Source: a virus
Length of the DNA stretch: 50,516 nt
Reading direction: 5' to 3' (one strand)
IMG/VR virus record: IMGVR_UViG_3300044834_000021
Span: 1-50,516 of that record
Shown: one piece after another, positions 1,017 through 32,459 of the stretch
Numbering within the stretch: position 1 is the stretch's first letter
How the letters are laid out: each line of letters starts with the position of its first letter
Position numbers and translations under genes: made by a program
The notes under the pieces: model-generated
Database searches by the model: none
Told to the model about the DNA's origin: nothing
Seen by the model: only the letters and a program-made list of their open reading frames with translations

Positions 1017-2783
1017 CTAGTTCGTCGCTGCGCGGGCCGACGCGGCGGCCTTTGCAACGTCCGGGTTGTTTTGCGTGACGATCTTGAGCGCGCTCGGGTA
1101 GTCGAGATCGCCCTTCGACTCCTGCATCGCGTTGAGCGCGAGACGGTGGAGCGCAGCGCGCGCGTCACCATCGGGATCGGGCGGCGTGGCCTCGGTGCCC
1201 TTCGATCCGCCGAAGATCGCGGGAGTCGCCGCGAGGTACTCCTTGAAGCCCTCGGGGTTGGACTTCGCGAACTTGGTGGCCCACGCCTTCTGAGCGGGGG
1301 CGACCTTCTTCTCCGTGATCGCCTGCGTGACGAGTGCGGTCGCGCGCTCCGTGGCACGCTCGGCCTTGAGCGTGACCAACTCTTCGCGCATCGCGTAGTC
1401 GGACGGCATCTTGCACGAGCCGTCTTCCCACTTGCCGCCCTTGTCCTCGCACTCGGCCTGCGTGGTGAACTCGCTCGCCACGCTGACCTTCTTGAACTTG
1501 GTCGCGGCCTCGGTGTTCGCGACTACGGCGGCGAGGATGTCCGCTTCGCTTGCCGTCTCCGCGAGTCCGAGGGCTTTGGCGATGACCTTCGGTTCCATGT
1601 TTGCTCCCTTCGCGTATTCACCTACGCCGGTCGCGGAGGCGTGCTGATCGAGGTGCGCTTTGGCCGCGTGGTCGCCGGACTTGAGTGCTGCGCGGAGGCC
1701 GCCGAGGTGCAGGAACATCTCGTCACCGGACACCCAATGGTGCGGATGGACCCACTTGGTCTTGTCGTCATCGGTCGCCACGGCGAAAGCCTCGGCCGGG
1801 AGTTGATCCTTCTCGATCTCGCTCCACGGTGGCTCGCCGCCACGTGATGTGTCGGAGTGCTTGAGCGCGGTACGCGCGTGCGCAGCCGCGTTGCCCTTGA
1901 GGAGGCCGCGTAGCGCGGCCGCCGTCTCGGTGAGGAACGAGCGCATCCGGGGCGCGCCGATCTTGCCCTTCGTGCCGTCCTTCACCTTCGCCGCGAGCGC
2001 CTCGAACTCGTCGGCGATGTTGTCCGCGATCTGATCGGTGCTCGCCTCGGAGAGGTCGTGATCCTTCGACGTGAACTTGATGACCGCATCGGCCTTCTTG
2101 TCGGAGGCGTAGGTGAGCGCGCCACCGTGGCGGCCGAGCGTGGAGCCGTAGAGGCTCACGATGTCGTCGAGGGTGGCGACGGCGGGTATCTCCTCACCGA
2201 GGAACGCGATCGCCTTGAGGACGTGCTTGTACGACTTGCCGTTCGGAGCCTTGCCGAACGAGCGCCAAATCTCCGAGGAGATGTTGCCGTATGCCTTCGC
2301 CTTGATGAGCGCCGCGATCTTCGCGGGCACCCGCGCCACGTCGGCCATCACCTTGTCGCCGACGCGGTACAGGTTGGTCACCCACCCGGCGGCGGGGTAG
2401 CCCTCGCGTTCGAGGAACTCTTGGTCGTCCTTGTGCCCGATCTTCGCGGGCGGTTCGAGGAGGCCCTCGGCCGTCAACTCGTTCGTGTTCTTGATGAGGT
2501 CCGCGATCTGCTCATCGGTGTACGGCTCGCCGTTCCAATGGCCGACGCTGAAAATCTCGACGCCGAGGAGGTCCTCGGTCGGGAGCGATTGGCCGTTGAT
2601 CGTGAGGGCCGTGCCGTCGTGGAAGTGGCCGATCGCGTGCTTCTTCGTGTCGCTCGATCCATCGCCGCCGCCCGACGCGATCGCGGTGCAGATGGTGCGC
2701 GCGCCCTCGTCGGTGAGTTCGGGGTCGCGGGATCGCTGCGCCACCATGCACGCATTGAGATCGGGGTACGGTCCTACGCTCAC
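1017..2783 (-). CDS. Prohead protease fused to scaffold
   Basis: About 588 aa from GTG 2783 (594 aa if GTG 2801 is used). The N-terminal half matches the phage head-protease pattern: 'EIFSVGHWNGEPYTDEQIADL', then 'PPAKIGHKDDQEFL', 'GWVTNLYRVGDKVMADV', 'ISSEIW' and 'LKAIAFLGEEIPAV'. In this family it processes the scaffold and coat during head maturation. The C-terminal half is charged and helical (Ala/Lys/Glu-rich) and ends with 'KKVAPAQKAWATKFAKSNPEGF', like the scaffold part of Mu gpI-type proteins. Inserted segments include an HPHHWV...MFLHLGGLRAAL block and a short Cys pair (CEDKGGKWEDGSC). GTG 2783 is preferred because a TACGGT -10 box ends six bases upstream, the spacing of the leaderless genes here. 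A terminator lies just upstream. Confidence 0.82.
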   Translation of the reverse strand: MSVGPYPDLNACMVAQRSRDPELTDEGARTICTAIASGGGDGSSDTKKHAIGHFHDGTALTINGQSLPTEDLLGVEIFSVGHWNGEPYTDEQIADLIKNTNELTAEGLLEPPAKIGHKDDQEFLEREGYPAAGWVTNLYRVGDKVMADVARVPAKIAALIKAKAYGNISSEIWRSFGKAPNGKSYKHVLKAIAFLGEEIPAVATLDDIVSLYGSTLGRHGGALTYASDKKADAVIKFTSKDHDLSEASTDQIADNIADEFEALAAKVKDGTKGKIGAPRMRSFLTETAAALRGLLKGNAAAHARTALKHSDTSRGGEPPWSEIEKDQLPAEAFAVATDDDKTKWVHPHHWVSGDEMFLHLGGLRAALKSGDHAAKAHLDQHASATGVGEYAKGANMEPKVIAKALGLAETASEADILAAVVANTEAATKFKKVSVASEFTTQAECEDKGGKWEDGSCKMPSDYAMREELVTLKAERATERATALVTQAITEKKVAPAQKAWATKFAKSNPEGFKEYLAATPAIFGGSKGTEATPPDPDGDARAALHRLALNAMQESKGDLDYPSALKIVTQNNPDVAKAAASARAATN

Positions 2784-5772: not shown

Positions 5773-6630
5773 ATGAAGGAACAGGCCACCACCACCCTCG
5801 CGATCGAGACCGACACGGCGCTCGCCGCCCTGTACTACAGGAAGGCGGCGCTCGGCGAGGACATCTCGGGCGACGTGAAGACGCTCGACTTCTACACGAA
5901 GAAGGCGGGGAAGGGCGCACTCGCGCCGTGGGACGCCGAGGCCGTGAAGAGGACCGAGGCCGGTCTCGCGATCAAGAGGGCGGAGATGGCCGAGATCAAG
6001 AAGGCGATGGAGCCGCTCGAAGCGATCTACGAGGCGCACAGGTGGACGAGGGCCTTCCTCGTGGTGCAGTCGCACAAGGGCCACGTGCACTCCTCGATGC
6101 ATTGCTCGACGTGCTACCCGACCACGGCCTTCGTGTGGCTCCCGAAATACTCCGGTGAGAGCGAGACGAAGATCGTGGCCGACGCGGGCGAGCGGGCGTG
6201 CACGATCTGCTACCCGAGCGCGCCGGTAGACGCGAAGGGCACGGTGATCTTCTCCGAGGACGAGATCGCCGCCGCGAAAAGGAAGGCCGAGAAGGCCGAG
6301 GCCAAGATCGCGAAGGACGCCAAGAAGGCAGCGGCCGCGCCCACCAAGAGCGGCGCTCCCCTGACGATCATCGAGGTGAGCACGGGTTGGGACGGCAAGA
6401 GCCACTCGTACAAGAGGAGCCTCGCGACCGAGATCACGGCCAAGAGCGAGTACGTGAGCATGGCTCAGTCGATCGCGTGGTCGAAGTGGCCGCAGGACAT
6501 CGAGGCGAAGAAGGTGGCGATGGCGCAGATCGCCGAGGCCCTCGCCGAGAAGCATGGCGTGACGATCGAGGAAGAGATCGCGGCCCTCGCGAAGAAGGTG
6601 GCCGCGAAGAACAGGAAGGACGGGGGATGA
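5773..6630 (+). CDS. Zinc-ribbon protein of an actinophage/actinobacterial type, 285 aa
   Basis: ATG 5773 is chosen over the in-frame TTG 5767 because it sits six bases after the -10 box, where transcription should begin. Residues 1-95 are helical. Residues 98-152 hold 'SHKGHVHSSMHCSTCYPTT' (C111, C114) and 'CTICYPSAP' (C143, C146), a paired C-x2-C unit with nearby histidines. Residues 160-190 form a lysine/alanine-rich charged linker, and the C-terminus is helical. The HSSMHCSTCYPTT pattern is familiar from proteins of actinobacterial phages and plasmids; its role is unknown. First gene of the plus-strand early unit that ends at the terminator at 7858. Confidence 0.85.
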   Translation: MKEQATTTLAIETDTALAALYYRKAALGEDISGDVKTLDFYTKKAGKGALAPWDAEAVKRTEAGLAIKRAEMAEIKKAMEPLEAIYEAHRWTRAFLVVQSHKGHVHSSMHCSTCYPTTAFVWLPKYSGESETKIVADAGERACTICYPSAPVDAKGTVIFSEDEIAAAKRKAEKAEAKIAKDAKKAAAAPTKSGAPLTIIEVSTGWDGKSHSYKRSLATEITAKSEYVSMAQSIAWSKWPQDIEAKKVAMAQIAEALAEKHGVTIEEEIAALAKKVAAKNRKDGG

Positions 6631-6749
6631 GAGGCCCGGAGGGATCGTTCTTCGGATGGACAGGCGGCGAGGTCGTGGTCGGCCTGATCGTGCTCGCGTT
6701 CTTTGTGATCGCGGTCCTGATCGCCATGCGGATCAAGCCCCCCGCTTGA
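6627..6749 (+). CDS. Small single-span membrane protein, 40 aa
   Basis: ATG 6627 overlaps the upstream TGA (ATGA), so it is translationally coupled. After a short N-terminus (MRGPEGSFFGWTGGE) there is one hydrophobic helix, about residues 16-34 (VVVGLIVLAFFVIAVLIAM), then RIKPPA, which predicts a basic tail inside the cell. Its stop overlaps the -35 of the next promoter. It could be a superinfection or membrane-modifying peptide or a lysis accessory; there is no direct evidence. Confidence 0.75.
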   Translation: MRGPEGSFFGWTGGEVVVGLIVLAFFVIAVLIAMRIKPPA

Positions 6750-6774
6750 CGACAGGTGACGACGATGGTACGCT
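6746..6774 (+). promoter_or_regulatory. Direct-repeat promoter for the 6803 gene
   Basis: TTGACG (6746-6751), 17-bp spacer, TACGCT (6769-6774), two TGACGAC units 10 bp apart. RNA start near 6781. The leader carries AAGGAAGGGAG before ATG 6803, so this copy gives a leadered mRNA. Confidence 0.87.
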
Positions 6775-6802
6775 TGGGGCAGCAAGGAAGGGAGACCAAC
6801 AG

Positions 6803-7216
6803 ATGAAGAACCCGTGGGGCAAGAGCATTCCGGTGGAGCCGAGGGCCACACTCGCCGATCGGGCTTACGCGGTCTACGAGGACCTCAGACTTCCCGGTTG
6901 GACGTGGTACGTGCTCAAGGTCAACCAAGCGCCCGGATCGAAGAAGGGCAAGTTCTCGTCGGCGTTCTGCCTCGTGACCTCGCCGATGACCGGCGGGTCG
7001 GGCGATCTCGGTGACACGTACCTGAGCGACATCGGCGGCACACTCATCAAGGGCGTGGACATCAAGGCCGGTGCGCCGATCGTGGAGGACCCGCTCGCGG
7101 ACATCCTCGACAAGCCGATCCCCGGCAAGCAGTACGCGCTCACCTCGTTCAAGAACGGCGGGCCGTCGATCGCGAACGGCAACACGTGGGCCGAGTCCGA
7201 AGTGAAGGAGGACTAG
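6803..7216 (+). CDS. Hypothetical protein, 137 aa
   Basis: ATG 6803 selected by the SD sequence and promoter just upstream; longer in-frame starts would read through the promoter. MKNPWGKSIPVEPRATL... contains 'GWTWYVLKVNQAPGSKKGKFSSAFCLVTSPMTGG' and 'DTYLSDIGGTLIKGVDI'. Probably a compact beta-rich soluble protein. No family recognised. Leads the block 6803-7828. Confidence 0.77.
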   Translation: MKNPWGKSIPVEPRATLADRAYAVYEDLRLPGWTWYVLKVNQAPGSKKGKFSSAFCLVTSPMTGGSGDLGDTYLSDIGGTLIKGVDIKAGAPIVEDPLADILDKPIPGKQYALTSFKNGGPSIANGNTWAESEVKED

Positions 7217-7426
7217 ATGGGCTACATGAGCGCAATGGGATCGTGCTTCGGGTGCGGGCGACTCTTCTCGTTCAATCCCGATCGCGTTCCCTCGGTGACG
7301 CCGCCGGGCGGCACACGGGAGCCGATCTGCCCCGAGTGCGTGAAGCGCGCGAACGTGGTGCGCGCGAAGAACGGCAAGGCCCTCATCGTCCCGATGCCGG
7401 GGGCCTACGAGCCGGAGGAGGTCTGA
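7217..7426 (+). CDS. Zinc-ribbon protein, 69 aa
   Basis: ATG 7217 follows the upstream stop directly. C-x2-C at 'CFGCGRLFSFNPD' and a second C-x2-C at 'PICPECVKRAN' form a classic four-cysteine zinc ribbon, with an ordinary hydrophobic C-terminus (GKALIVPMPGAYEPEEV). This type ('GSCFGCGRLFSFNPDRVPS') is common in actinobacterial phages. Function unknown, perhaps nucleic-acid or protein binding. Confidence 0.8.
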   Translation: MGYMSAMGSCFGCGRLFSFNPDRVPSVTPPGGTREPICPECVKRANVVRAKNGKALIVPMPGAYEPEEV

Positions 7427-7427
7427 G

Positions 7428-7703
7428 ATGCCACGCAGCACACGCCGCCCGTATTGGCCCCGGTACTTCCTCGTGCACGACTCGGGCTTCCCGGCTCACG
7501 CGAAGGACGCCGGGACGCTCAAGAGGGCGCGCGACATCTATCACGCAGCCGGGTGGCACACGACGATCATCGGCCCGGTCGGCTCGCGCGAGGAGGCGAT
7601 GAAGAGGGCGCGGCCGTGGTGGGACAAGTTGCGCGCGGCCGAGCGCGCGCTCGCCGATCGCGCCGAGGCCCTCATGGCGGCGAAGAAGGAGAGCGCGTCG
7701 TGA
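7428..7703 (+). CDS. Hypothetical basic protein, 91 aa
   Basis: MPRSTRRPYWPRYFLVHDSG..., basic N-terminus, 'RARDIYHAAGWHTTIIGPVGSREEAMKRA' and a helical Ala/Arg-rich tail. No motif recognised. Starts one base after the upstream stop and is coupled to the next gene by TGATG. Confidence 0.7.
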   Translation: MPRSTRRPYWPRYFLVHDSGFPAHAKDAGTLKRARDIYHAAGWHTTIIGPVGSREEAMKRARPWWDKLRAAERALADRAEALMAAKKESAS

Positions 7704-7828
7704 TGTGGCTCGACGAGGACAGGCGGCTCGGAGAGGCGCTCATCGAGCGCGCGGTCAACGGGGTCGAGGCCGCCGTGAGAGAGTGGGAACAAGAGATGAT
7801 CCGCGCGGACGAGGCTGTAGCCCGGTAA
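7703..7828 (+). CDS. Small acidic helical peptide, 41 aa
   Basis: ATG 7703 overlaps the upstream stop as TGATG. MWLDEDRRLGEALIERAVNG... is a single amphipathic, acidic helix. Last gene of the plus-strand unit, immediately before the terminator. Function unknown. Confidence 0.6.
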   Translation: MWLDEDRRLGEALIERAVNGVEAAVREWEQEMIRADEAVAR

Positions 7829-7857: not shown

Positions 7858-7888
7858 CCGCCGGGTGAAAGCCCGGCGGTTTTCTTTT
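7858..7888 (+). terminator. Intrinsic terminator of the plus-strand early unit
   Basis: CCGCCGGG (7858-7865) and CCCGGCGG (7872-7879) form a perfect 8-bp stem with loop TGAAAG, followed by TTTTCTTTT. The U tract is only on the plus strand. It separates this unit from the convergent MuF gene ending at 7887. Confidence 0.92.
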
Positions 7889-9167
7889 ACGCCGCGAGGT
7901 CGAGGTCGAGCACGCCGTTGGGACGCGGCACGGTCTTCCATGCGTCCGCGATCTTGCGCTCGATCGCGAGGCGCTCCTTCGGATCGGTGCTCGCCTTGAG
8001 GAGGTCGTAGAGCGGGTGGCTGATCCGCTCCTTCACGTCGATCGAGAAGGGCGTGTGGAACTGCATCTCGAAGAGTTGCCCGTTCTGCGCGCGCCATACG
8101 GTGTTGATCCCCTGATAGCCGGTGGCCTCGGCCTGCCATGCGTTCTTGACCCGGACGAGCGTGAAGCCCTGCGCGCGCAGGCGCGCGATCACGGTCTTGG
8201 TCCCGGCCGCGTACTGCTCGGCGCGGAAGAGGGTCGTGTAGCGGATCGCGTCCTTGATCGAGTCCTGCACGGCGGGCGCGACGAGGAGGTGGACATCCGC
8301 CGCGATCTTGCGCTCGATCGAGGCCACCGTCTTGAGCCGGAACTCGAAGCCGCCGAGCGTGCCATTCGCGTCGTCGGCCGCCTGCGCCACCGCGCGCGAG
8401 ATCGCAGGCTCGCTCGCGGCCGCGCGCTCGCGCACCGCCACCGCGTACTCCTTCGGCGTGCCGGTGGCGGGCAGCGACTTGACCGGCGGCGGGACGAACT
8501 CGGGCTTCGGTGAGACGGTCGGGGCCGGGAGCGGAACGATCGGGGCCGGAGGCGAGACGATTGGGCGTTCCCACGGTACGGGCGTCCCACGAGACGGCAG
8601 GGGCCGCCACGGAGGACGCGGGCTGAGAGGGCGCAGCGGGATCGCGCCGGGCGGGGCCTCGGTCTTGAGCGTGAGCACGAACTGACACCGGCACCGGCCG
8701 CGCCCCTCGCAGTCCACGTAGGGCGGCAGGAGCGCGTTGTACTCGGCCGAGCCGAACACGACCTCGGTCCCGTCGGCGGCCGCGCAGGCATCGCAGGTGT
8801 TCTCGTCGAGGAGCGAGGTGTACGTCGCGACCTCGATCTCCTGCGCGAACACCGTCATCTCATCGTGCCGCCCGAGCGCGAGCGCCTCACTCGCGAGGTT
8901 GTCGGCCGCCTGCGAGAGGAGCGAGTCCGCGCGCCCGGTGAGGACCTCGATGAAGTGCTCGGTCGTGGCCGCGTCGAGGTTGGACGTGCGCATCTGCGCG
9001 AGCGCCTCTTCGAGTGAGGCGAAGCGCAGGCCGTCCGCGATCTGCACCGCCTGCGCCGTAGCGCGCCCGGTGAGGATCGAGTTCGAGCGTCGGAGATCGA
9101 TCACGAGGTTGCCCGAGCGGTATATGGGACTTTTCGCATTTGGCGTGGGGTCGATGCGCGAGTGCAT
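7887..9167 (-). CDS. MuF head protein fused to a RelA/SpoT-type synthetase domain
   Basis: 426 aa from ATG 9167. The start is uncertain: the open frame reaches 9260, but that end covers a repeat-type operator, and GTG 9104 is also possible. Residues 60-165 carry the MuF minor-head signature 'LLDENTCDACAAADGTEV' (C125, C128) followed by 'PYVDCEGRGRCRC' (C153, C159, C161). Residues 172-231 are a proline-rich linker. From about 274 the C-terminal domain shows all (p)ppGpp-synthetase landmarks in order: RLKTVAS (R277-x-K279-x3-S283, the RxKxxxS ATP-binding motif), KDAIRYT (D306, metal), GYQGIN (Y351, nucleotide stacking) and FEMQFHT (E367, catalytic Glu of the ExQ motif). It should transfer pyrophosphate from ATP to a nucleotide. 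Fusion to MuF suggests a virion-associated effector. No hydrolase domain or adjacent antitoxin is evident. Confidence 0.85.
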   Translation of the reverse strand: MHSRIDPTPNAKSPIYRSGNLVIDLRRSNSILTGRATAQAVQIADGLRFASLEEALAQMRTSNLDAATTEHFIEVLTGRADSLLSQAADNLASEALALGRHDEMTVFAQEIEVATYTSLLDENTCDACAAADGTEVVFGSAEYNALLPPYVDCEGRGRCRCQFVLTLKTEAPPGAIPLRPLSPRPPWRPLPSRGTPVPWERPIVSPPAPIVPLPAPTVSPKPEFVPPPVKSLPATGTPKEYAVAVRERAAASEPAISRAVAQAADDANGTLGGFEFRLKTVASIERKIAADVHLLVAPAVQDSIKDAIRYTTLFRAEQYAAGTKTVIARLRAQGFTLVRVKNAWQAEATGYQGINTVWRAQNGQLFEMQFHTPFSIDVKERISHPLYDLLKASTDPKERLAIERKIADAWKTVPRPNGVLDLDLAA

Positions 9168-9182
9168 TGAGGTCCATGCACT
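9161..9182. repeat. Inverted repeat at the MuF-RSH start
   Basis: AGTGCAT (9161-9167) and ATGCACT (9176-9182) are perfect 7-bp arms with an 8-base spacer, in an AT-richer patch that also has CATATACC nearby at 9119-9126. It overlaps the ATG at 9167. It could be an operator for the MuF-RSH gene, or a hairpin limiting its translation. Confidence 0.45.
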
Positions 9183-9240
9183 TTTGCATCGCTGCAAGGC
9201 CGCCAACTCAATGTCAAGGTCGATTTGCCGAGCACGACCC

Positions 9241-9481: not shown

Positions 9482-10048
9482 ATGAGGGTGGTCAACGAGA
9501 CCTCGTATCGCACCGACCATCTCCGCGCGATCGCCGCGCGGGTGGCGAAGGTCGAGATCGAAGACGCCGGGGCGCGCAAGCGCCTCGTCGTCGTGTTCTC
9601 GTATCGCAAGCGCAGGGGGTGGCTCGCCGCCGCTCATGACACCGGAGTATCCGGGCACGCCTCGATGGGGAGCAACCGCTTCCCCGGCCGGGCCACGATC
9701 CTCGTCACGCGCTCGGGCATCGACCACACCGATCTCGCCTTCGTGCTCGCGCACGAGTTGGCTCACACGAGGGGCATGGGCCACGCGCTCATGCGCGGCT
9801 CCTCGATCTACCGGCGGGAGGGCGAGTGGCGCGCTCGCTACGAGTGGGCGGAGGCCATGCCGATCGACCTCAAGCCGGTGAAGGGCAAGAAGGTCGTGAC
9901 CCCGGAGGTCGCGCTCGCCATGAGGATCGCGCTCGCGCGCAGGCGCGAGAAGGAGTGGACGACGCGCGCGCGCCGCGCGGCGACGGCACTCAAGAAGTAC
10001 AAGCGCACGATCACGCGGCTCGAACGCAAGGCCGCGATCTCGACCTAG
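9482..10048 (+). CDS. Metzincin-like zinc metalloprotease candidate, 188 aa
   Basis: ATG 9482 immediately after the upstream stop. Residues 91-101 read HELAHTRGMGH, an exact HExxHxxGxxH motif (H91, H95 and H101 as zinc ligands, E92 catalytic). M126 in 'EWAEAMPIDL' could serve as a Met-turn. The upstream strands (LVVVFSYRK, ATILVTRSG) fit an edge-strand arrangement. The C-terminal 50 residues are strongly basic and helical. There is no signal peptide, so it should act in the cytoplasm or inside the virion. SprT-like or minimal gluzincin proteases are alternatives. Expressed opposite to the neighbouring virion genes, next to the MuF-RSH gene. Confidence 0.72.
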   Translation: MRVVNETSYRTDHLRAIAARVAKVEIEDAGARKRLVVVFSYRKRRGWLAAAHDTGVSGHASMGSNRFPGRATILVTRSGIDHTDLAFVLAHELAHTRGMGHALMRGSSIYRREGEWRARYEWAEAMPIDLKPVKGKKVVTPEVALAMRIALARRREKEWTTRARRAATALKKYKRTITRLERKAAIST

Positions 10049-10212: not shown

Positions 10213-10683
10213 CTACGCGCGTCCCTTATCGGTGGCGGGCGGCGGCTTGCTCGTCACCTGCTCCACCTTGAGCGGCGCGAGTTCCTCCGCGCGCTTGACG
10301 ATCTCGACCGGGACCGGCCCCGGCTTGGACTCGCGCTTCGCGTCGGCGTCGGCTTCAAGACGACCCTCGGCCTTCGCGCTCGCCTTCGTGAGCGCGAGCA
10401 GTTCGGAGAGTCGGCCATCCACACGCTTGCCCAACTCGAACACGCCCTCCGAGGTCGAGATCATGATGGCGCGGCCTTCCTCGGCCGCCGTCTTCGCAGC
10501 CTCGGCGGCGGCGACTGCGGCGGCACCCTTCTCGGCGGCGATCACCTTCGCGGCCTCGGCGGCCACCTTCGCGTCGTTCGCCTTCTGCCCGTTGCGCAGC
10601 GTCACGACGAGCGCGCCGATCGCGGCGATGAGCGTCGTGATCGCCGTGATCGCGTTGGGTACGTCTTCCCAATTGAAGTCCAC
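10213..10683 (-). CDS. Membrane-anchored Ala-rich coiled-coil protein, 156 aa
   Basis: GTG 10683 with GAGGAGG just upstream. Residues 8-28 form a hydrophobic helix (PNAITAITTLIAAIGALVVTL), followed by about 90 residues of Ala/Lys/Glu-rich helix (a likely coiled coil) and a Pro-rich basic tail. The single N-terminal span plus helical tail resembles some phage holin-like or spanin-like membrane proteins, but position at the end of a virion block would also fit a membrane-contact or ejection protein. Last gene of this minus unit. Confidence 0.68.
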   Translation of the reverse strand: MDFNWEDVPNAITAITTLIAAIGALVVTLRNGQKANDAKVAAEAAKVIAAEKGAAAVAAAEAAKTAAEEGRAIMISTSEGVFELGKRVDGRLSELLALTKASAKAEGRLEADADAKRESKPGPVPVEIVKRAEELAPLKVEQVTSKPPPATDKGRA

Positions 10684-10696
10684 TAGTCCTCCTCGT

Positions 10697-10978
10697 TCAT
10701 GGTGTGAAGTTCGAGTCTCGCACACGGAGCACGCGCTCGGCCGCCGCCTCGATCGTGCCCGTGCCCTCGAAGCGGTAGTGCCATTCGCCCTCCGCGTTGA
10801 GCGAGAGGTCGTGCGTGTAGACGCCGACGCTCGGGTGGGTCGGCACGGGCGTCGTCACGGTCCCGGCCGGGTCCTTGATGCGCAGCACGACGGCGGTCGG
10901 ATCGCCGAGCACGTCGGCGTCGTAGAAGTTCGCCGTGAGCCGCGCGCGCCCGCCCTTGTCGTAGGTGTTGATCGGCAC
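10697..10978 (-). CDS. Beta-sandwich virion protein candidate, 93 aa
   Basis: MPINTYDKGGRARLTANFYD... with 'PTAVVLRIKDPAGTVTT' and 'GVYTHDLSLNAEGEWHYRFEGTGT', the alternating strand pattern of small Ig-like phage accessory proteins that decorate heads or fibres. Overlaps the upstream stop by one base. Assignment by pattern only. Confidence 0.65.
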   Translation of the reverse strand: MPINTYDKGGRARLTANFYDADVLGDPTAVVLRIKDPAGTVTTPVPTHPSVGVYTHDLSLNAEGEWHYRFEGTGTIEAAAERVLRVRDSNFTP

Positions 10979-11883
10979 TAGGCACCCACCGTGTCGAGGT
11001 AGTAGAGCGTGACCTCGACCACACCGCTGACCGGCGCGGTCGCCTGCCCGCCGATCTGTACAAGCGGATGAGTACCCGGCCCGAGGATGTAGTCACTCAC
11101 CGCCGCGTTGCCCGTGGACTTCTTGATCGAGTCGCCCGCGACCGCCCCCGCGAGGCCGTGGCCGACCACGGCATCATCCACGGCCGTCAGGAACACTCCG
11201 GCCTCGAACGCCTGCGTGATGTCGAGGACCGCGCCCACCGGGACCGCGCCGAGCGGCAAGGACCCGGCGAACGTGGCGCAGTAGTTGCCGTTGGGCGGGT
11301 CGATGTCCACGAAGTCGGCGAAGCCGAACGTCTCGATGATCTGTTTGAGTTCGGGCGCACCGGGGTCGATGTAGAAGATCGTGACCGCGATCTCGCCGTC
11401 GGTGGAGATGTCGGTGGACGTGTCCACCGTCGGGAACACGGGCGCGGTCGCGTCGAAGGTCCCGCCCTCCTGCGCGAGAGACGGGTATCGGCCGACCGCC
11501 TGCAACTGCGCAGAGGAGATGTTCCCGCACGGGGTCATGCCGAGCGCGGGTCTCACGAGTAGCGACTGCACGGGCGCGCCCATTGGCTCAAGCACCTCGA
11601 TGAGCGAGCCGAGCACGAGCGCGCCCGGAGGCAGGGGCGTGTCGAAGGTCGCGACCGAACTCCCGTCCACGTCGGCGAAGTCGGCATCGGTGAACGTCTG
11701 CTTGCGCGTGCGGATCATCGCGCCACCCGCCACGATCGCGCCCTCGACGCCCGCCTCGGGTCCGAGGAGGAGGTCGAGCAGGGTGACGGCCCCGAGCGGC
11801 GCATCGTCGAGCGCCACGTGGCCGACGCGCGCATCCTCGACCGTGATGCCGAGGACCGGCTCATCGGTGATCTCAAGCGTCAT
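10978..11883 (-). CDS. Duplicated-domain virion protein, 301 aa
   Basis: Acidic, beta-rich, no Cys cluster. Two similar halves are visible: one around 'TFTDADFADVDGSSVATFDTPLPPGALVLGSLIEV', the other around 'TFGFADFVDIDPPNGNYCATFAGSLPLGAVPVGAVLDI', each followed by a segment ending in 'YIDPG' or 'YLDTVG'. Internal duplication is common in phage appendage proteins. Overlaps the 12811 gene by 11 bases. Probably part of a fibre or head-associated structure. Confidence 0.68.
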   Translation of the reverse strand: MTLEITDEPVLGITVEDARVGHVALDDAPLGAVTLLDLLLGPEAGVEGAIVAGGAMIRTRKQTFTDADFADVDGSSVATFDTPLPPGALVLGSLIEVLEPMGAPVQSLLVRPALGMTPCGNISSAQLQAVGRYPSLAQEGGTFDATAPVFPTVDTSTDISTDGEIAVTIFYIDPGAPELKQIIETFGFADFVDIDPPNGNYCATFAGSLPLGAVPVGAVLDITQAFEAGVFLTAVDDAVVGHGLAGAVAGDSIKKSTGNAAVSDYILGPGTHPLVQIGGQATAPVSGVVEVTLYYLDTVGA

Positions 11884-12811
11884 CGATCGCGGCCATCATC
11901 ATCGCGAGGATCACCGGGTTGGCGTAGCGCGGGTCCGGCCACTTCTTCACACCCGCCACGTCCCACACCTTCACCTCGTCGCGGCCGCGCAAGCGCGCGA
12001 GCACGGCCGCATCGTCGAGCGCCTTCGCGCCTTCGCTGAGATCGGCGACCTGTCTGCGCCTGCGTGGCGACATCGGGCCGGTGCCGACGCTCGGGTACGA
12101 CGGGGTGGGGATCGACTCGTTGACCTCGGCCGCGTCCTCCGCGAAGGCATCGTCGGCCGCGTTGATCTCGACGAAGACCGTGACCTCGGCGGCATCGCTC
12201 GCCGTGGCGTCGTCGCTTGTCGTCGCGAGGGTGGCTGCGATCGCAAGGTCGTCCGAGACCGGGATGAGTTCATCGGCCGTGGCGGCCGCGCTGATCTGCG
12301 CGAGGTCGTCGCCCATGCCGGGATCATCCGGGTGCGCCTGCACGAGCAGGCTCGCCTCGTCGAGTCCACTTCCGGTATCGGCCGGGCTGACGATCGCGAG
12401 GACCGAGGTCGCATCCGCCCCCGTGGCCGTGTCGCCGCCCACAAGGAGCGCGGTCACGGTGCCCGTGTCGCCTCCTGTGGCTTGATCTGAGGCAGTCGCG
12501 AAGACGCCTACACCTGCGGTATCCCCGGCTGCGCCGAGGTCACTACCGTCGGGAGCCGCTAGGACGGCGGCGCTATCACTTCCGGTAGCGGGATCGTCGG
12601 CGCTGATCGAGACCGGCCCGCCGACCTGTGCCTCGTTGAACGCCATCTCGGCCGGAGACCAATAGGTCTCGGTCGTCCACGCGGGCTGCGCCGCGTTGAA
12701 CTGCATGGAGAGCGTGATCGGTGCCGTGTCGTGGAAGCCCCACGTGGTCGCGGTCGCGCCCGCCGCGAAGTCGTCGTAACTGAATGGAAGGTCCCACGTG
12801 AGTTTCGCCAC
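11873..12811 (-). CDS. Asp/Ala-rich repetitive virion protein, 312 aa
   Basis: GTG 12811. Residues 1-65 resemble a structural domain (MAKLTWDLPFSYDDFAAG, Trp/Tyr-rich). Residues 70-235 are a low-complexity region of about 20-residue imperfect repeats ('ATGSDSAAVL', 'ATGGDTGTVTAL', 'DTGSGLDEASLL'), very acidic and poor in lysine. Residues 240-312 return to ordinary composition with a basic stretch (PRRRRQV). The repetitive spacer suggests an extended, flexible fibre or linker. Confidence 0.68.
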   Translation of the reverse strand: MAKLTWDLPFSYDDFAAGATATTWGFHDTAPITLSMQFNAAQPAWTTETYWSPAEMAFNEAQVGGPVSISADDPATGSDSAAVLAAPDGSDLGAAGDTAGVGVFATASDQATGGDTGTVTALLVGGDTATGADATSVLAIVSPADTGSGLDEASLLVQAHPDDPGMGDDLAQISAAATADELIPVSDDLAIAATLATTSDDATASDAAEVTVFVEINAADDAFAEDAAEVNESIPTPSYPSVGTGPMSPRRRRQVADLSEGAKALDDAAVLARLRGRDEVKVWDVAGVKKWPDPRYANPVILAMMMAAIDDA

Positions 12812-12814
12812 CCG

Positions 12815-13285
12815 CTAGTGCTTCTTCGCCTTCGCCTTGAGTGCCTTGCCCATGCTCGCGTGCCTCTTGTCCGACGCGACGGTCGCGTTGGTCAGGAGCA
12901 CGATGCGCTCACCTTCGAGCCGCGCGATCGTGGCGAGTGTCGTGTCGCGCTTGGTCTTGAGATCGGTGGGCCACTTGTCCTCGGCCACGCCATCGAGCGC
13001 GCGGAGCACGGGCGCGATCTCGGTGTTGTACGTGTACTGCACCGCATCGCGCTCGGCCGCCTTCTCCATGATCTCCCGTTGGTGGGGTATCTGCTCCGTG
13101 AGTTGCGCCACGCACTCATCGAAGAGGACTTGCATCGCGTCGAGTTGGTGGGCCTCGCACGCATCCGCCTCTTCGGAGTGGCCGGTCGGCATCTCGGGCA
13201 AGACCACGTTGTCGATCTGCACGCCGACCACGACCCGGAACGCCGGGACCTCACCGCCCACGTCGCACTTCTTCTCGGTTGTCAC
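12815..13285 (-). CDS. Hypothetical helical protein, 156 aa
   Basis: GTG 13285 overlaps the upstream TGA (GTGA). MTTEKKCDVGGEVPAFRV... then a mostly helical, charged body ('LTEQIPHQREIMEKAAERDAVQ') and a lysine-rich end (KALKAKAKKH). Might be a head- or tail-associated accessory or chaperone within the appendage block. No motif recognised. Confidence 0.65.
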   Translation of the reverse strand: MTTEKKCDVGGEVPAFRVVVGVQIDNVVLPEMPTGHSEEADACEAHQLDAMQVLFDECVAQLTEQIPHQREIMEKAAERDAVQYTYNTEIAPVLRALDGVAEDKWPTDLKTKRDTTLATIARLEGERIVLLTNATVASDKRHASMGKALKAKAKKH

Positions 13286-13950
13286 TCGAACTCCTCCCAT
13301 GCCGGGTTGATGTAGAGACGGCGGTTGCCCGCCGTGACCGCGACCGCGTGCCACATCGAGACGCCCTCACCCGCCCGGTGCACCATCTCGGCCTGCTCGC
13401 TATCGGGATTCCACTCGGCCCGGTGCGGATTCCAATGGCCCGCGCCGCCGGTCACGAGGTCCATCGTGTTGTACTGCTCGCCGAAGATGACGCCCGTGAG
13501 CGTCACCGTGAGGCCCGTCGATGCGAGCCGGAGGTTGCCCTGCGCGGCCGCGTCGGTCGTGTCACGCTTCGCCGGAGTGACGAGCGTGCCCGATCCCGTG
13601 CCGGTGAAGGTGAATAGTTGGAAGCGCAGTTCGCCGCCGAGGAGATCGACCGCGAGCGCGATGAACTGCACGTTCCACGTGAGCCGCTTGAGCGCCATCT
13701 TGATCGTGGCCCCGACCGGGTTGTAGAGCCATGCGTACCCGGTGCTCGTGCCGTTCTGCACGGCGGCCGGGACGGTGAGGACACCCGTGCTCGCCTTGTA
13801 GCCGCCCGTGACGCCGCGCGCGGAGATCGGGATGAAGAAGTGCTCGTGGGTCGTGTCCGACCCGACGACGCGCGTCTGCGTGCGGTTCTTCTTGCCGGTG
13901 TTGCCGGTATCGACCGGCAGTTGAATGAAGGACGCGATCGGCGCGGCCAT
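13282..13950 (-). CDS. Beta-rich virion protein, 222 aa
   Basis: MAAPIASFIQLPVDTGNTGK... with many Thr, Gly and Val strands ('FTGTGSGTLVTPAKRDTTD', 'LRLASTGLTVTLTGVI') and 'GGAGHWNPHRAEWNPD'. Type and position fit a virion appendage protein. Coupled to its downstream neighbour by GTGA. Function inferred from composition only. Confidence 0.7.
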   Translation of the reverse strand: MAAPIASFIQLPVDTGNTGKKNRTQTRVVGSDTTHEHFFIPISARGVTGGYKASTGVLTVPAAVQNGTSTGYAWLYNPVGATIKMALKRLTWNVQFIALAVDLLGGELRFQLFTFTGTGSGTLVTPAKRDTTDAAAQGNLRLASTGLTVTLTGVIFGEQYNTMDLVTGGAGHWNPHRAEWNPDSEQAEMVHRAGEGVSMWHAVAVTAGNRRLYINPAWEEFE

Positions 13951-14541
13951 CTAGGAGAACGTAATCGTGGCCGTGATCTGCCACACGACGCCGACGATCT
14001 TGGTGCCGAACGCCTGCACGGCGCGGTTGAGCAGATCGCCCGCTCCCGCCGCCGCGTTGCGGATGCCCCACTCGTTCCATGCCTGATTGGCGTCACCGCT
14101 CGCGAAGGTCGAGCGCCACGTGACGATGTTCGAGCCGACGCCCGGCGCGCCCACGCTCGGGTACGTCGGGTCCATCGCGATGCAGACCTCGGCCGTGAGC
14201 GCGGTCGAGGTGTTCGGCACCGGGTTGGCGGTCGAGGATGTGCCGACGCAGATGCGCGCGTTCGCGTTGTTGAAGGCGGTCCCGCCGTTGCCCGAGATGA
14301 GTTGCCCGATCACGTGCGCGCCGTTGTCGCGCGTGAGCGAGTTGATGCTCATGCGCCGGAACAGGGGCTTGATGCCGCGCCGCGCGAGGAGGTCGCGCGC
14401 GATCCGGTCGGCCTCGATCGGCGAGTAGCCCGCGCGCGCCGCTTCCTTCTCCCACGCGAACTTGAGCGCGATGTCGCGCGGCCGCCACGCCTCGACGAGA
14501 CCGATGCCCTTGATCCGGCCGGGGTCTACCGAGTTGAGCAT
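13951..14541 (-). CDS. Virion protein of a common phage type, 196 aa
   Basis: The N-terminus is helical and basic ('ALKFAWEKEAARAGYSPIEADRI'). The C-terminal half has 'TWRSTFASGDANQAWNEWG', 'LLNRAVQAFGTK' and 'WQITATITFS', a pattern seen repeatedly in phage structural proteins of unknown precise role. It abuts the neighbouring genes without gaps. Likely a component of the appendage attached near the portal block. Confidence 0.7.
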   Translation of the reverse strand: MLNSVDPGRIKGIGLVEAWRPRDIALKFAWEKEAARAGYSPIEADRIARDLLARRGIKPLFRRMSINSLTRDNGAHVIGQLISGNGGTAFNNANARICVGTSSTANPVPNTSTALTAEVCIAMDPTYPSVGAPGVGSNIVTWRSTFASGDANQAWNEWGIRNAAAGAGDLLNRAVQAFGTKIVGVVWQITATITFS

Positions 14542-14829
14542 CTAGGCCACCGCCGAGACGCCGTGCACGAGGACCCACGCGATGTCGTTGAGTAGCGCGC
14601 CGTTGGTCAGGATGATGTTCGTGCTCGGCGCGACGGGCGACACGTTGAACGGCCCGGCCGCGTTCGGCGAGAAGACCGCCGTCGCCTTCGTGACCTTCTT
14701 GAAGTACCCGCCGACCTCAAGGGTGTCGAGGTCGTCCACGTCGCTGCACCGGAACAACATCACGCGCTCGCTCGCGCCGCCGTCGTCGGCGAGCACCCGG
14801 ACGTTGGGATGCACGAGCGCCTTAGCCAC
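14542..14829 (-). CDS. Small beta-rich virion protein, 95 aa
   Basis: MAKALVHPNVRVLADDGG..., then 'RCSDVDDLDTLEVGGYFKKVTKA', 'PVAPSTNIILTNGALLND'. Overlaps the 15169 gene by eight bases. No family recognised; context suggests a structural role. Confidence 0.62.
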   Translation of the reverse strand: MAKALVHPNVRVLADDGGASERVMLFRCSDVDDLDTLEVGGYFKKVTKATAVFSPNAAGPFNVSPVAPSTNIILTNGALLNDIAWVLVHGVSAVA

Positions 14830-15169
14830 GGCTCGGCACCCCGCGTCCCGCGTTCACGGCCTCGATCATCCGGTCGCGCGTCATCTTCACGAAGTCGCGG
14901 CCCCTCTTGGAGAGCGTGACCTCGGTGCGCCGACCGTTGCAGCCGCATTGCACCCACGGCGGCTCGTCGTTGGTCAACTGCATGACGTGATTGGGAGCGC
15001 CGCAGTTCGAGCAGGCCACGATCCCGTGCGCCGCCATCTCCTCGGCGTCGTCGGTCGCGATGTCCTTCGCTGCTCCCTCGATCGTGTTCACGCGCACGAA
15101 CTTCGGCGCGTCCTTCGCCTTGAAGATGAGGTGCGCTTCGCGACGTTCGGGCGATTTGCCCTCGGCCAT
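14822..15169 (-). CDS. Zinc-ribbon protein, 115 aa
   Basis: Middle segment 'VACSNCGAPNHVMQL' with C-x2-C and 'WVQCGCNGRRTEV' with C-x-C, giving a four-cysteine zinc site. Both ends are basic and charged. It starts four bases after the portal stop. Possibly a packaging or head-assembly accessory; function unknown. Confidence 0.68.
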   Translation of the reverse strand: MAEGKSPERREAHLIFKAKDAPKFVRVNTIEGAAKDIATDDAEEMAAHGIVACSNCGAPNHVMQLTNDEPPWVQCGCNGRRTEVTLSKRGRDFVKMTRDRMIEAVNAGRGVPSRG

Positions 15170-15173
15170 TTGC

Positions 15174-17534
15174 CTACTCCTCTACCGGCTCGATGCCGGT
15201 GACGACTCCGTGCTCATCGATCTTGGTCTTGTACGCCACGCGCTTCTTGCCGCCCTCAGTCTGCACCACGATCGGGCGTGAGGCCATCGCCTTGACGAGT
15301 TCGAGCACACGATCGCCGGTCTTCGCGTCCGCACTCGCGCGCGTGATCTCCTCGAAGGCGTGCCGATAGGTCTCGATGAGCGCGGCCTCGCGCGTCATCT
15401 GCGCCGCCTGCGTGCCGCGCACGTCCACGATCTGCTTCTTGATCTCGTCCCTCACGTGCAGCGCGCCCGTGCGGTAAAGGTCGTCGAGTTGCGTCTTGAG
15501 CGCGGCTTCGAGTTCGCCCGTGTCGAGGCCGAGCGCGTCGGCTTGCAGGATCGAGGGATCGCCCGCCTTGAGCGCACGCACCGCGCGCGCGGCGAGATCG
15601 CGAATGATCCGCTGCACCGGGGTCTCGGCCCCGTCCTTGATCTTGCCCTTCGCCTCCGCGAGGGTGCGGTCGAGCGCCTCGAAGTCCACGTAGGACTCGG
15701 GCTTGGTGAGCGCGCGCTTGGGCGACCACACGAACGGCATCGCCTCCTTCGGATAGGAGGTGTGGAGATCGCCCTGCGCGTCCTCGTTCATCGGCTCAAG
15801 CCCGCACATGAGGCAGCGCGGGTGCCCGTTGGCCGTGGTGAAGCGCGCGGAGTGGAAGGCGTGCGGGGCCTTCGCCTCGTCCATCGCGGCGTTGCGCGCG
15901 ATCTGCGCGTTCTCGCTCGCGTAGTCGGACGCGACCGTGAGGAGCGGCACGAGCGGGCCGGTCTCGGTCGCGGGATCGGGCACCTCATGCGCCGCCGGGC
16001 GGCCGTCGAGTTCCGCGTCGAGTTCGCTCCTGACCGCGTACCTGCGCGTGCGCCGCCTGTTGAGGCGCGCACCGGGCGGCGCGGGCGACATCGGCTGCCC
16101 CTTCGTGGCGCTCGGGTTGGTGGCGGCTCCGCTCGGTGGCTGACCGGGCGGCGTCGTCGCGCCTCCGAGTTGCGGCATCGTGTCTTGCACGCCGGGCGGC
16201 ATCATCCCGGCGGGCATCTCCGGCCGGATCACGTCGCCGTTCGCATCGCGCGGCAGGAGCGGGAGGCCGTTCATCTCGCGGAGGTCGTCCTCGATGTCGT
16301 CGTCGGGCGTGATGAGGCCCGCGTTCGCGGCGTTCGCGAGACCCGACAGGAGTTCGACCGCCTTGCGGGTCTCGATCTTGGTGACCTTGAGTTTTGGGTA
16401 CTCCTTTACGCCCGCGTAGTTGTAATCAACCCACCGAGGAATGAGGTGCCGGTTGATGATGTCGCACACGTAGTCGCCGATCGACTGCTCGACCATGAGG
16501 AAGAGGCCCGACTGATCGGCGCTGAGTGCCCACGACCCCACGTCGTTCGAGCCGAGCGTGAGGAATTGTTCGAGCATCGCGACCGCGATCATGCGGTCGT
16601 GGTGCTGAATCATCGGCAGGAGGTCCATCTGCTGCCCGCCGCCCTGCGAGGACGTGATGAGCGAGAAGAGATACCCGGCGGGCCACACGACGTAGCCGCG
16701 CTCATGCGCGCGCAGGCTCGCGAGGATGTTCTCCGCCTTGCGCACGTTGTCATCGTCGCTTTGATCCGGCGGTAGCGTGACGCTCGGGATGCCGACGCCC
16801 CACCGCTCGGCCGCCATCGCCTGAATGCGGTAGAGCGTGTCCTTGATCCACCAATGCTTGTACGCCGGGCGCAGGACGGAGAGACCCATCCAATCCGCGC
16901 CCTCCTTCTCGTTCACGAACACGAGCAGGCGGCCGATGTCGATGTCGATGTTCTCGAAGCCGCGCGATCCATACGTGGACTGCGTGACGGTTTCGAGGCC
17001 GCCGTCGTCGGCCGTGTTGAACTTGAGGATCGTCTTCTGCAAGCGCGGCGCGAGTTTGCGGAGCATGAACTTTTGCTCGCCGTCTACATCGCGCACCTCG
17101 AACACGGTCTCGAACACGCCGAAGCCGAAGGGCAGGAACGAGAGGATTTGCCTGAGCGTGTCCTGCCATGAGGTCGTGAGGCCCTCGAAGAGACCGTCCT
17201 CGATCTCTTCGCCGATCTCGGTGTTCTTCTCATCGTCGTCGGCGGGCACGATCTCCCACTCGGCGGAGAGGAGCGGCATCATGAGGCCGCGCAACACCGC
17301 CTTCACCATGCCGTCCGATCGGCGCATCTTGTCAAAGGTGCGCAGCCCGGAGAGGCCGGTGAGTTCCGGCACGTACTCGTCGGTGGCGATGAAGCCGTGG
17401 AAGGCTTGGGTGCCGGTGCGGCCGCGCTCGCCGAGTGGTGCGCTCGGACGCCGGACACTCTCCTGCATCGGGATCACCTTGCGGCCCTCGGGATCGCGCG
17501 CGATGTGCGCGGCGTTGATGTCGCGCACGGCCAC
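15174..17534 (-). CDS. Portal protein (Mu gp29-like) with long C-terminal extension, 786 aa
   Basis: Residues 50-455 follow the SPP1 gp6/Mu gp29 (DUF935) portal pattern: 'GMVKAVLRGLMMPLLSAEWEIVP', 'FGFGVFETVFEV', 'PAYKHWWIKDTLYRIQAMAAERWGVGIP', 'MIAVAMLEQFLTLGS' and 'DDLREMNGLPLLPRD'. It should form the dodecameric DNA channel at the head vertex. About 455-500 is Pro/Gly-rich. From 500 on comes an extension with a short Cys pair ('HPRCLMCGLEP') and a long helical part ('LKTQLDDLYRTGALHVRDEIKKQ') resembling the first half of MuF-type minor head proteins. Most portals of this type are 450-550 aa, so the extension is notable. It follows TerL by seven bases. Confidence 0.88.
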   Translation of the reverse strand: MAVRDINAAHIARDPEGRKVIPMQESVRRPSAPLGERGRTGTQAFHGFIATDEYVPELTGLSGLRTFDKMRRSDGMVKAVLRGLMMPLLSAEWEIVPADDDEKNTEIGEEIEDGLFEGLTTSWQDTLRQILSFLPFGFGVFETVFEVRDVDGEQKFMLRKLAPRLQKTILKFNTADDGGLETVTQSTYGSRGFENIDIDIGRLLVFVNEKEGADWMGLSVLRPAYKHWWIKDTLYRIQAMAAERWGVGIPSVTLPPDQSDDDNVRKAENILASLRAHERGYVVWPAGYLFSLITSSQGGGQQMDLLPMIQHHDRMIAVAMLEQFLTLGSNDVGSWALSADQSGLFLMVEQSIGDYVCDIINRHLIPRWVDYNYAGVKEYPKLKVTKIETRKAVELLSGLANAANAGLITPDDDIEDDLREMNGLPLLPRDANGDVIRPEMPAGMMPPGVQDTMPQLGGATTPPGQPPSGAATNPSATKGQPMSPAPPGARLNRRRTRRYAVRSELDAELDGRPAAHEVPDPATETGPLVPLLTVASDYASENAQIARNAAMDEAKAPHAFHSARFTTANGHPRCLMCGLEPMNEDAQGDLHTSYPKEAMPFVWSPKRALTKPESYVDFEALDRTLAEAKGKIKDGAETPVQRIIRDLAARAVRALKAGDPSILQADALGLDTGELEAALKTQLDDLYRTGALHVRDEIKKQIVDVRGTQAAQMTREAALIETYRHAFEEITRASADAKTGDRVLELVKAMASRPIVVQTEGGKKRVAYKTKIDEHGVVTGIEPVEE

Positions 17535-17541
17535 TAGCGGA

Positions 17542-19002
17542 TCACCATTGCTTCGTCAGGAGACCGGCGGTCTCGGGTCGGCTGCGATCGCGGCGTACCG
17601 ATGTGTCGCCTGCCGGTGCCCGCAGGGGTCGGGTCCGACCGAAGGCCGAGAGACCCATCGCGAGGTAGCGGAGAGCATCGGCTTCGTCGTCGTCCTTCTT
17701 CACCAACTGCTCCTTGCCGGTGCCTTCGGCCCATCGCGCGCGCTCGACGCCTGCTACCACTTTCGGGCAACGGCCTCGCAGGAAGAGTAGGCGACGTTGT
17801 TGCAGGCGTCCATAGACTTCTGCGACCCCGCCCTTTATGTCGTTGATCTTGATTTTCGCGAGGCCGGGGATGATCTTCGCGCTCGGCAGATCGTCGCCGG
17901 TCGTGACCGGCAGGCGATGCACGGTGCGCAACTCGTTGATGATCTGCGCCGCGCTCGGGTCCGCGAAGATGAGGCGCGGCCGCCGCGTGAGGATCACGCG
18001 CGCGACATCGCTCACGCTCATGCCGGACTCGACGTGCTCGCGGAAGATGTACAGGCGATTGGTCTCGGGACTCCATGCACCCCACACGATCGCGGTCGGG
18101 TGAGCCGACCCGAAGTCGAGACCCATGTACACGTGCCACCCCGGTAGCGGCTCGAACTCCTCGATCACGTGAACGTCCTCGTCGAAGTTCGGCCACGCCG
18201 CGCCCTCGGGCTTGGACAGGAGACCGAGGTAGAACATCGCGAAGCGCCACCACGGCTCGGTCTCCATGAGGCGCTCGAACTCCTTGCGCGGGTACATGGG
18301 ATTCATGACCGACGGGAAGTGAATGACCTCGATCTCGGGGTCGGCCTTGCGCCGGAAGTCCTGCACCACCTGCAACGTCCACCCCTCGCTCACATAGGGC
18401 GTGGTCGTGACGAGCAGATCGCCGAGGTGGAAGGCGAGACGACGCAGGACCGTGGAGTGCGTCTTGTCGTCGATCTGCCCGCCCTCATCCACCCACGCGG
18501 CGCGGTAGTGCACACCCTCGATCGAGCCGGGGTTGTCGAGCGAGCGGAAGCGGATGAGGATGCCGCCCTTGAGGTGCCACGTCTTCGTCGATCGCACGAA
18601 GCCGTCCTTGCCGTCGCCGTAGCGCGGATCGCCGAGACGGCGCAGCCACGGCGCGAGTTCGGCGTAGGCCGGGAACAGGAGGTCGGTGGTCGGAGCCGCG
18701 ACGAGGAAGTTGCGCGTGCGCAGCGGCCACCCCATCGCCTTCTTGATCCGTGGTAAGAGCCAATGCGGGCCGATCGTTGTCTTACCACCGCCGGAGCCTG
18801 CGAACAGGTACGTGCGGCGCGCTTTGGAAAGGAGCGCGCGCCGCTGCCCGTCGTGTATCCGCACCGGCACGATCTCGCGGTTGGGATCGCTGACTCGGTA
18901 GCCCTGCTTTTGGAGCGCGAGCCTGATCTCCTCATCGGAGTAGTCCTCCCATGAGAGCGCGCCGAGATCGACGGTCTTCTTCGTTCTAGGCACCGGCATC
19001 AC
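17542..19002 (-). CDS. terL: Terminase large subunit, 486 aa
   Basis: Motor ATPase: Walker A GSGGGKT (residues 69-75) and Walker B AAWVDE (168-173, catalytic E173). Nuclease: D295 in 'GLDFGSAHPTAIVW', D347 in 'IFADPSAA' and D441 in 'DDEADALRYLAMG', the three-acid RNase H-like arrangement. It pumps genomic DNA through the portal and cuts it. Length is normal for the family. GTG 19002 and ATG 18999 are adjacent starts; the gene overlaps the upstream one by 17 bases. Which packaging class (pac or cos) applies cannot be told from the sequence; the absence of fixed ends would fit headful packaging. Confidence 0.96.
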   Translation of the reverse strand: MMPVPRTKKTVDLGALSWEDYSDEEIRLALQKQGYRVSDPNREIVPVRIHDGQRRALLSKARRTYLFAGSGGGKTTIGPHWLLPRIKKAMGWPLRTRNFLVAAPTTDLLFPAYAELAPWLRRLGDPRYGDGKDGFVRSTKTWHLKGGILIRFRSLDNPGSIEGVHYRAAWVDEGGQIDDKTHSTVLRRLAFHLGDLLVTTTPYVSEGWTLQVVQDFRRKADPEIEVIHFPSVMNPMYPRKEFERLMETEPWWRFAMFYLGLLSKPEGAAWPNFDEDVHVIEEFEPLPGWHVYMGLDFGSAHPTAIVWGAWSPETNRLYIFREHVESGMSVSDVARVILTRRPRLIFADPSAAQIINELRTVHRLPVTTGDDLPSAKIIPGLAKIKINDIKGGVAEVYGRLQQRRLLFLRGRCPKVVAGVERARWAEGTGKEQLVKKDDDEADALRYLAMGLSAFGRTRPLRAPAGDTSVRRDRSRPETAGLLTKQW

Positions 19003-32431: not shown

Positions 32432-32459
32432 AGTATATGGCTCATATACTCGTCGTCAA
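32432..32459 (-). promoter_or_regulatory. Promoter with a 19-bp palindrome replacing the second repeat
   Basis: Minus strand: -35 TTGACG (32459-32454) and -10 TATACT (32437-32432), spacer 16. The first repeat unit TGACGAC is present, but instead of the second there is a perfect inverted repeat AGTATATG (32432-32439), 3-base spacer, CATATACT (32443-32450). The palindrome covers the -10 and most of the spacer, so binding there would block transcription. Confidence 0.72.

What the first reader, a model, noticed from the sequence alone, without database searches (positions are those of the whole stretch)
7887..9167. MuF head protein fused to a RelA/SpoT-type pyrophosphokinase domain
Seen: a MuF cysteine signature (CDAC...C...C-x-C), a proline-rich linker, then RxKxxxS, KDAIRY, GYQGIN and FEMQFHT, i.e. 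every landmark of the (p)ppGpp synthetase fold in the right order. Known: MuF proteins sit at the portal inside phage heads and, in some temperate phages, carry C-terminal polymorphic toxins; RelA-fold toxins can make (p)ppGpp or (p)ppApp. Inferred: an alarmone-making effector packaged in the virion and delivered with DNA, perhaps to arrest the host or a competitor. No adjacent immunity or hydrolase gene is visible, and the gene lies apart from the other head genes.
Basis: partly seen in the sequence, partly recalled or inferred. Interest (0 to 1): 0.88.

Follow-up and report, generated by a model that had tools for sequence, protein, structure and literature searches.

The report
Phage head protein carrying alarmone-making enzyme
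A phage gene fuses a head-protein tag (MuF) to an enzyme domain that makes the bacterial alarm nucleotides (p)ppApp or (p)ppGpp, so the phage probably injects the enzyme with its DNA; this kind of fusion is already known, but this copy lacks the usual immunity genes and sits outside the described family.

Summary
The gene at 7887-9167 (-) encodes a divergent MuF domain, a disordered proline-rich linker and a complete RelA/SpoT-type synthetase (SYNTH) domain. The C-terminal model is very confident (pLDDT 93). Its best solved match is the exported alarmone synthetase SaEAS (8vx3; Foldseek E 2.6e-15, TM 0.86; phmmer 6e-21). Catalytic residues are intact and nearly invariant in 61 relatives.

The idea is not new: MuF-RelA fusions were catalogued in 2017, and MuF-Apk2 toxins of temperate phages make (p)ppApp.

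What differs here:
- No IapK, Aph1 or HD-hydrolase gene was found; no co-oriented neighbour lies within 2 kb downstream.
- No tyrosine or serine integrase was found in this complete circular genome.
- The synthetase domain is rejected from the Apk2 clade (AU p=0.0002).
- A relative phage (portal 51% identical) keeps the head module but lacks this gene, so it is accessory cargo.

Most relatives outside the Apk2 clade also lack these immunity genes and sit in head modules on several carriers (MuF, portal, head protease, short tags).

Best reading: a virion-packaged alarmone synthetase injected to shut down or reprogramme the host. Product, packaging and effect are untested.

The parts
7887..9167 (-). 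MuF-linker-SYNTH gene, 426 aa from ATG 9167 (alternative TTG at 9260 adds 31 aa)
8649..9014 (-). Divergent MuF (SPP1 gp7-like) domain with CDAC...C...CRC; Pfam core 8679-8912
8472..8666 (-). Proline-rich linker, predicted disordered (pLDDT below 50)
7887..8459 (-). SYNTH domain (RelA/SpoT-type nucleotide pyrophosphokinase), residues 237-426
8319..8339 (-). syn1-like motif RLKTVAS (R277, K279, S283)
8235..8252 (-). syn2 motif D306-AIR309-Y-T (catalytic Asp; RYT signature)
8103..8120 (-). syn3 motif GYQGIN (GxN signature, N355)
8052..8072 (-). syn4 motif FEMQFHT (E367, Q369)
15174..17534 (-). Portal protein (Portal_Mu); no MuF domain detected in it
17542..18999 (-). Terminase large subunit
1017..2747 (-). 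Head maturation protease
9482..10048 (+). Divergent neighbour with HELAHTxGxxH metallopeptidase motif (weak family hits); relation to the finding unknown
5773..7828 (+). Convergent small genes downstream of the fusion gene; none matches a known immunity family

Best explanation
The gene encodes a virion-carried alarmone synthetase. The N-terminal MuF domain docks the protein in the head near the portal, so a few copies leave with the DNA. In the newly infected cell the C-terminal SYNTH domain transfers pyrophosphate from ATP to the 3'-OH of ATP/ADP (perhaps also GTP/GDP), making (p)ppApp and/or (p)ppGpp, draining ATP and shutting down or redirecting host transcription, translation and growth. 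It is optional cargo of this phage rather than a core head protein. No immunity gene is needed because it is made late in a cell that is about to lyse. Shown: fold, intact active site, MuF relationship, accessory status, absence of known immunity genes. Inferred: packaging, ejection, product, effect, and why immunity is missing.
For: Fold and active site: phmmer to SaEAS 6e-21; profile to SaEAS 3e-59 and Tas1 1e-7; model pLDDT 93.4; Foldseek TM 0.86 to 8vx3, then SAS1, Tas1, RelP, CapRel, Rel; catalytic residues invariant in 61 relatives. Head tag. Head-module relatives: pneumococcal and Pasteurellaceae MuF-Apk2 proteins; environmental relatives on MuF, portal or head protease, or beside terminase or portal. 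Accessory status: relative L172 (portal 51% identical) has portal, the intermediate genes and protease without this gene. No Aph1/IapK/HD_4 and no tyrosine or serine integrase. Biochemical precedent: Apk2 domains are toxic in E. coli and make (p)ppApp (PMC12226406); SaEAS makes both alarmones and EAS enzymes are toxic in the cytoplasm (PMC12691689).
Against: No direct evidence of packaging, ejection or activity. The MuF match is below Pfam's cut-off and the N-terminal half of the model is poor. The gene is not adjacent to the portal, and its co-transcription with head genes is unproven: it lies between opposite-strand genes and no consensus promoter was found. No close homologue exists in the collections searched, so selection on the active site could not be measured within the lineage.
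Confidence: 0.66

Rival explanations
1. A conventional MuF polymorphic toxin of a temperate phage: the same enzyme, but used by lysogens against competitors, with an immunity protein of an unrecognised family.
For: Characterised MuF-Apk2 relatives are in phages or prophages with iapK and aph1 next door (PMC12226406; PMC5576092). IapK proteins diverge fast (35-38% identity, PMC12226406), so an unknown one could be missed. Small unassigned genes lie nearby on the other strand.
Against: No co-oriented gene follows for 2 kb; no Aph1, IapK or HD_4 match; no tyrosine or serine integrase; domain rejected from the Apk2 clade (AU p=0.0002).
Confidence: 0.2
2. An anti-competitor or superinfection device: the injected enzyme arrests secondarily infected or non-host cells, or trips a dormancy response, rather than helping take over the primary host.
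For: Alarmone overproduction arrests or kills cells (PMC12226406, PMC12691689). It would be compatible with every sequence feature found here.
Against: No specific sequence evidence; delivery into a cell always comes with a phage genome.
Confidence: 0.08
3. A structural MuF protein whose SYNTH domain is inactive or merely structural.
For: One Pasteurella phage relative (L005) carries a Gly at the usual Asp, so inactive versions may exist in the family.
Against: All catalytic residues are intact in the window and invariant in 61 relatives; a relative phage does without the gene, so it is not an essential head part.
Confidence: 0.04
4. Another nucleotidyl- or ADP-ribosyltransferase-type toxin resembling RelA by chance, or a tRNA pyrophosphokinase.
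For: ART domains are common on MuF proteins (PMC5576092); some SYNTH-fold toxins modify tRNA (reference list in PMC12691689); CapRel is among the structural hits.
Against: Structure and profiles point to SaEAS first, well ahead of CapRel.
Confidence: 0.03

Closest known systems
Apk2 (MuF-adenosine 3'-pyrophosphokinase toxins; S. pneumoniae, M. haemolytica, P. multocida, B. caccae prophages)
   Same: MuF N-terminus plus C-terminal SYNTH domain with RYT and GxN signatures; about 30-38% identity over the domain (PMC12226406).
   Different: No iapK or aph1, not adjacent to portal, no integrase found, QFHT instead of QYHT at syn4, outside the Apk2 clade.
Exported alarmone synthetases (EAS; SaEAS 8vx3, AaEAS, VpEAS)
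   Same: Closest solved structure and best PDB sequence match; conserved active site; several EAS genes also lack immunity genes (PMC12691689).
   Different: Delivered by Sec, T7SS, T3SS etc., not a phage head; grouping with Streptomyces EAS also disfavoured (AU p=0.015).
RelA/SpoT domains in phage polyvalent and MuF proteins (Iyer et al. 2017)
   Same: The published idea that phages deploy a RelA/SpoT domain, also fused to MuF, to shut down or alter host expression (PMC5512222).
   Different: That survey gives the domain class, not this phage; the separate placement from the Apk2 clade, the missing immunity genes and the accessory status in this lineage were worked out here.
Tas1/Apk1 (T6SS (p)ppApp synthetase, 6ox6)
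   Same: SYNTH fold and catalytic residues.
   Different: PAAR/T6SS delivery with a cognate immunity protein; more distant.

Membership tests
SYNTH-fold alarmone synthetases (RSH/SAS superfamily) | Predicted fold matches solved synthetases | tested here: met
   Foldseek TM 0.86 to 8vx3 and E<=1e-5 to SAS1, Tas1
SYNTH-fold alarmone synthetases (RSH/SAS superfamily) | Catalytic residues (SaEAS D121, R124, N169, E182, Q184) | tested here: met
   D306, R309, N355, E367, Q369 present; four of them invariant in 61 relatives, N at least 90%
SYNTH-fold alarmone synthetases (RSH/SAS superfamily) | Makes (p)ppGpp or (p)ppApp | not testable with these tools
   needs in vitro assay
MuF polymorphic toxins | N-terminal MuF domain | tested here: met
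   Weak but consistent: 2.9e-5 below cut-off, portal-MuF homologue 2e-5, profile-profile 90%, E 1.4e-6
MuF polymorphic toxins | Gene immediately downstream of portal | tested here: not met
   about 6 kb away with several genes between
MuF polymorphic toxins | Short immunity-type ORF directly downstream | tested here: not met
   Next co-oriented gene more than 2 kb away; intervening genes on the other strand
MuF polymorphic toxins | Encoded by a temperate phage | tested here: inconclusive
   No tyrosine or serine integrase in a circular genome; other lysogeny modes not excluded
Apk2 | IapK and Aph1 immunity pair | tested here: not met
   HMMs for both and Pfam HD_4 find nothing
Apk2 | Toxin domain belongs to the Apk2 clade | tested here: not met
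   AU p=0.00017
Apk2 | Product exclusively (p)ppApp | not testable with these tools
   RYT and GxN signatures fit, but SaEAS has the same signatures and makes both alarmones (PMC12691689)
EAS | SYNTH domain with an export-associated N-terminal domain | tested here: met
   MuF counted among EAS delivery domains (PMC12691689)
EAS | Groups with the Streptomyces EAS clade | tested here: not met
   AU p=0.015
Canonical Pfam RelA_SpoT (PF04607) | Match to the Pfam model | tested here: not met
   no match at E<=0.001

The most novel reading that the evidence does not exclude
Lytic or non-integrating phages inject immunity-free alarmone synthetases as host-takeover enzymes, mounted on interchangeable head carriers (MuF, portal, head protease, short tags); the temperate, immunity-paired Apk2 toxins would be only one specialised branch.
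Probability: 0.35. Interest if true: 0.65.

Novelty: new variant of a known kind. Interest (0 to 1): 0.42.

Why it matters
The physiological role of MuF-borne alarmone synthetases is stated in the literature to be unknown (PMC12226406). An accessory, immunity-free version in a phage without a detectable integrase points to a role during infection itself rather than in competition between lysogens, and that can be tested. The wider set suggests that phage heads deliver this enzyme repeatedly, on several carriers.

Tried and rejected
Single-sequence scans of viral contigs with the full protein, the SYNTH domain, terminase and protease found no relatives. A nine-sequence alignment was too diverse to scan with; the four-sequence alignment worked.

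One PDB search used an out-of-frame slice of the gene (window:7887-8550): its only hit was chance, and it is disregarded.

Considered and rejected: an ADP-ribosyltransferase (structure says otherwise); the portal carrying its own MuF domain; an HD hydrolase elsewhere in the genome. The promoter and terminator scan gave nothing. Host assignment failed: terminase and portal hits are remote and mixed.

Full report
What is there. The window is one IMG/VR virus record. Its ends share an exact 127-base repeat, and the major capsid frame runs across the join, so it is a complete circular genome of about 50.4 kb. The reported gene is on the minus strand, ATG 9167 to stop 7887, 426 aa, and is chosen by codon usage.

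The enzyme domain. Residues 237-426 match the crystal structure of the exported alarmone synthetase SaEAS of Streptomyces albidoflavus by sequence (8vx3, E 6e-21). A 61-sequence profile reaches SaEAS at 3e-59 and Tas1 at 1e-7. The AlphaFold2 model has pLDDT 93.4 and pTM 0.89. Foldseek ranks SaEAS first (TM 0.86 and 0.84), then SAS1, Tas1, RelP, CapRel and Rel. Pfam's own RelA_SpoT model does not detect the domain.

The head tag. PF04233 matches weakly. The MuF part is 38% identical to the C-terminus of a portal protein from a spring-water phage over the aligned stretch, and profile comparison with bona fide MuF domains gives 90% probability, E 1.4e-6. The linker is predicted disordered. MuF is therefore accepted, with moderate confidence.

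Neighbourhood. On the circular map the minus-strand late order is terminase, portal, several genes (10213-15169), the fusion gene, a block of small genes on both strands, head protease, a scaffold-like gene, capsid, then tail. The fusion gene is flanked by plus-strand genes on both sides. No Aph1 or IapK (HMMs built from five reference phages) and no HD_4 domain were found in the genome, nor a tyrosine or serine integrase. L172 is a relative whose portal is 51% identical and whose terminase, protease, scaffold-like protein and capsid also match. In it portal and protease are only about 3.6 kb apart, and neither MuF nor SYNTH lies between them. The gene is thus accessory in this lineage.

Relatives. 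186 viral-contig stretches encode relatives, of which 80 were kept, and 152 from bacterial genomes, of which 80 were kept. Reference phages of Streptococcus and Pasteurellaceae show portal, muf-apk2, iapK and usually aph1 in a row. In the careful tree these and their kin form a clade with 99/98 support. Forcing the window into the classical Apk2 set is rejected (AU p=0.00017), and grouping with Streptomyces EAS is also disfavoured (p=0.015). The window falls with L013, L019 and L021, at weak support (84/81). Of 31 non-redundant viral relatives, 23 have neither Aph1 nor IapK in the stretch held; some of those stretches are short, and other immunity families could exist.

Carriers. The same enzyme domain sits on MuF type 1 (L021, L054, L058, L048), MuF type 2 (L043), a portal (L019), a fusion with the head protease XkdF-like domain (L039, L040), a LigT-SYNTH-MuF protein (L013), and short proteins with repeated tags next to terminase or head genes (L087, L014, L011, L020, L030).

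How it works. Most likely a few copies are held at the portal by MuF and ejected with DNA; the enzyme makes (p)ppApp and/or (p)ppGpp and drains ATP, shutting down or redirecting the host. Fold, active site and accessory status are shown; packaging, product and effect are inferred from Apk2 (PMC12226406) and EAS (PMC12691689). RYT and GxN signatures have been linked to adenosine specificity (PMC12226406), but SaEAS carries the same signatures and makes both alarmones (PMC12691689), so the product stays open.

Known or new. The fusion class and the idea of host shut-off were published in 2017 (PMC5512222, PMC5576092) and the biochemistry since then. This gene fails three tested features of Apk2 (immunity pair, clade, portal adjacency) but works like it: a new variant of a known kind.

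Noticed in passing
window 1-127 and 50390-50516: Exact 127-base end repeat; the record is a circular complete phage genome with the capsid gene split across the ends.
   Followed up: yes
L002 1584-3986 (also L023, L026, L028, L107): The MuF-Apk2 protein of phage Aaphi23 and kin is 800 aa and appears to carry an intein-like insert between the MuF cysteine motif and the toxin domain.
   Followed up: no
L005 2589-4028: Pasteurella phage Pmp4 Apk2 has Gly at the normally invariant syn2 Asp (RGVIRYT), so this natural copy may be inactive.
   Followed up: no
L087 7797-10504: Three neighbouring genes near the terminase gene share the N-terminal tag SYQTLxRxxAxxAHGTxGRPSYxxYH followed by different domains (SYNTH, an ART-like domain judged by eye, DUF7178): looks like a virion-cargo tag.
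   Followed up: partly
L011 6432-8483: One 684-aa frame directly after portal combines what looks by eye like an ART domain with a SYNTH domain; terminase lies just upstream.
   Followed up: partly
L030 483-1310, 2549-4465, 6225-6791: SYNTH protein and two nearby proteins share the HYGxxGMKWG motif (DUF7211 matched in the two that were scanned), another possible head-cargo tag.
   Followed up: partly
window 9482-10048 (+): Divergent neighbour with HELAHTRGMGH, a metzincin-type zinc site; a peptidase beside a multidomain head cargo could process it.
   Followed up: no
window 32456-33457 (-): Very strong match (1.6e-113) to a phage family annotated as DNA topoisomerase, 333 aa.
   Followed up: no
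window 9168-9189: Inverted repeat ATGCA-AAAG-TGCAT just upstream of the fusion gene's ATG, operator-like; not tested.
   Followed up: no
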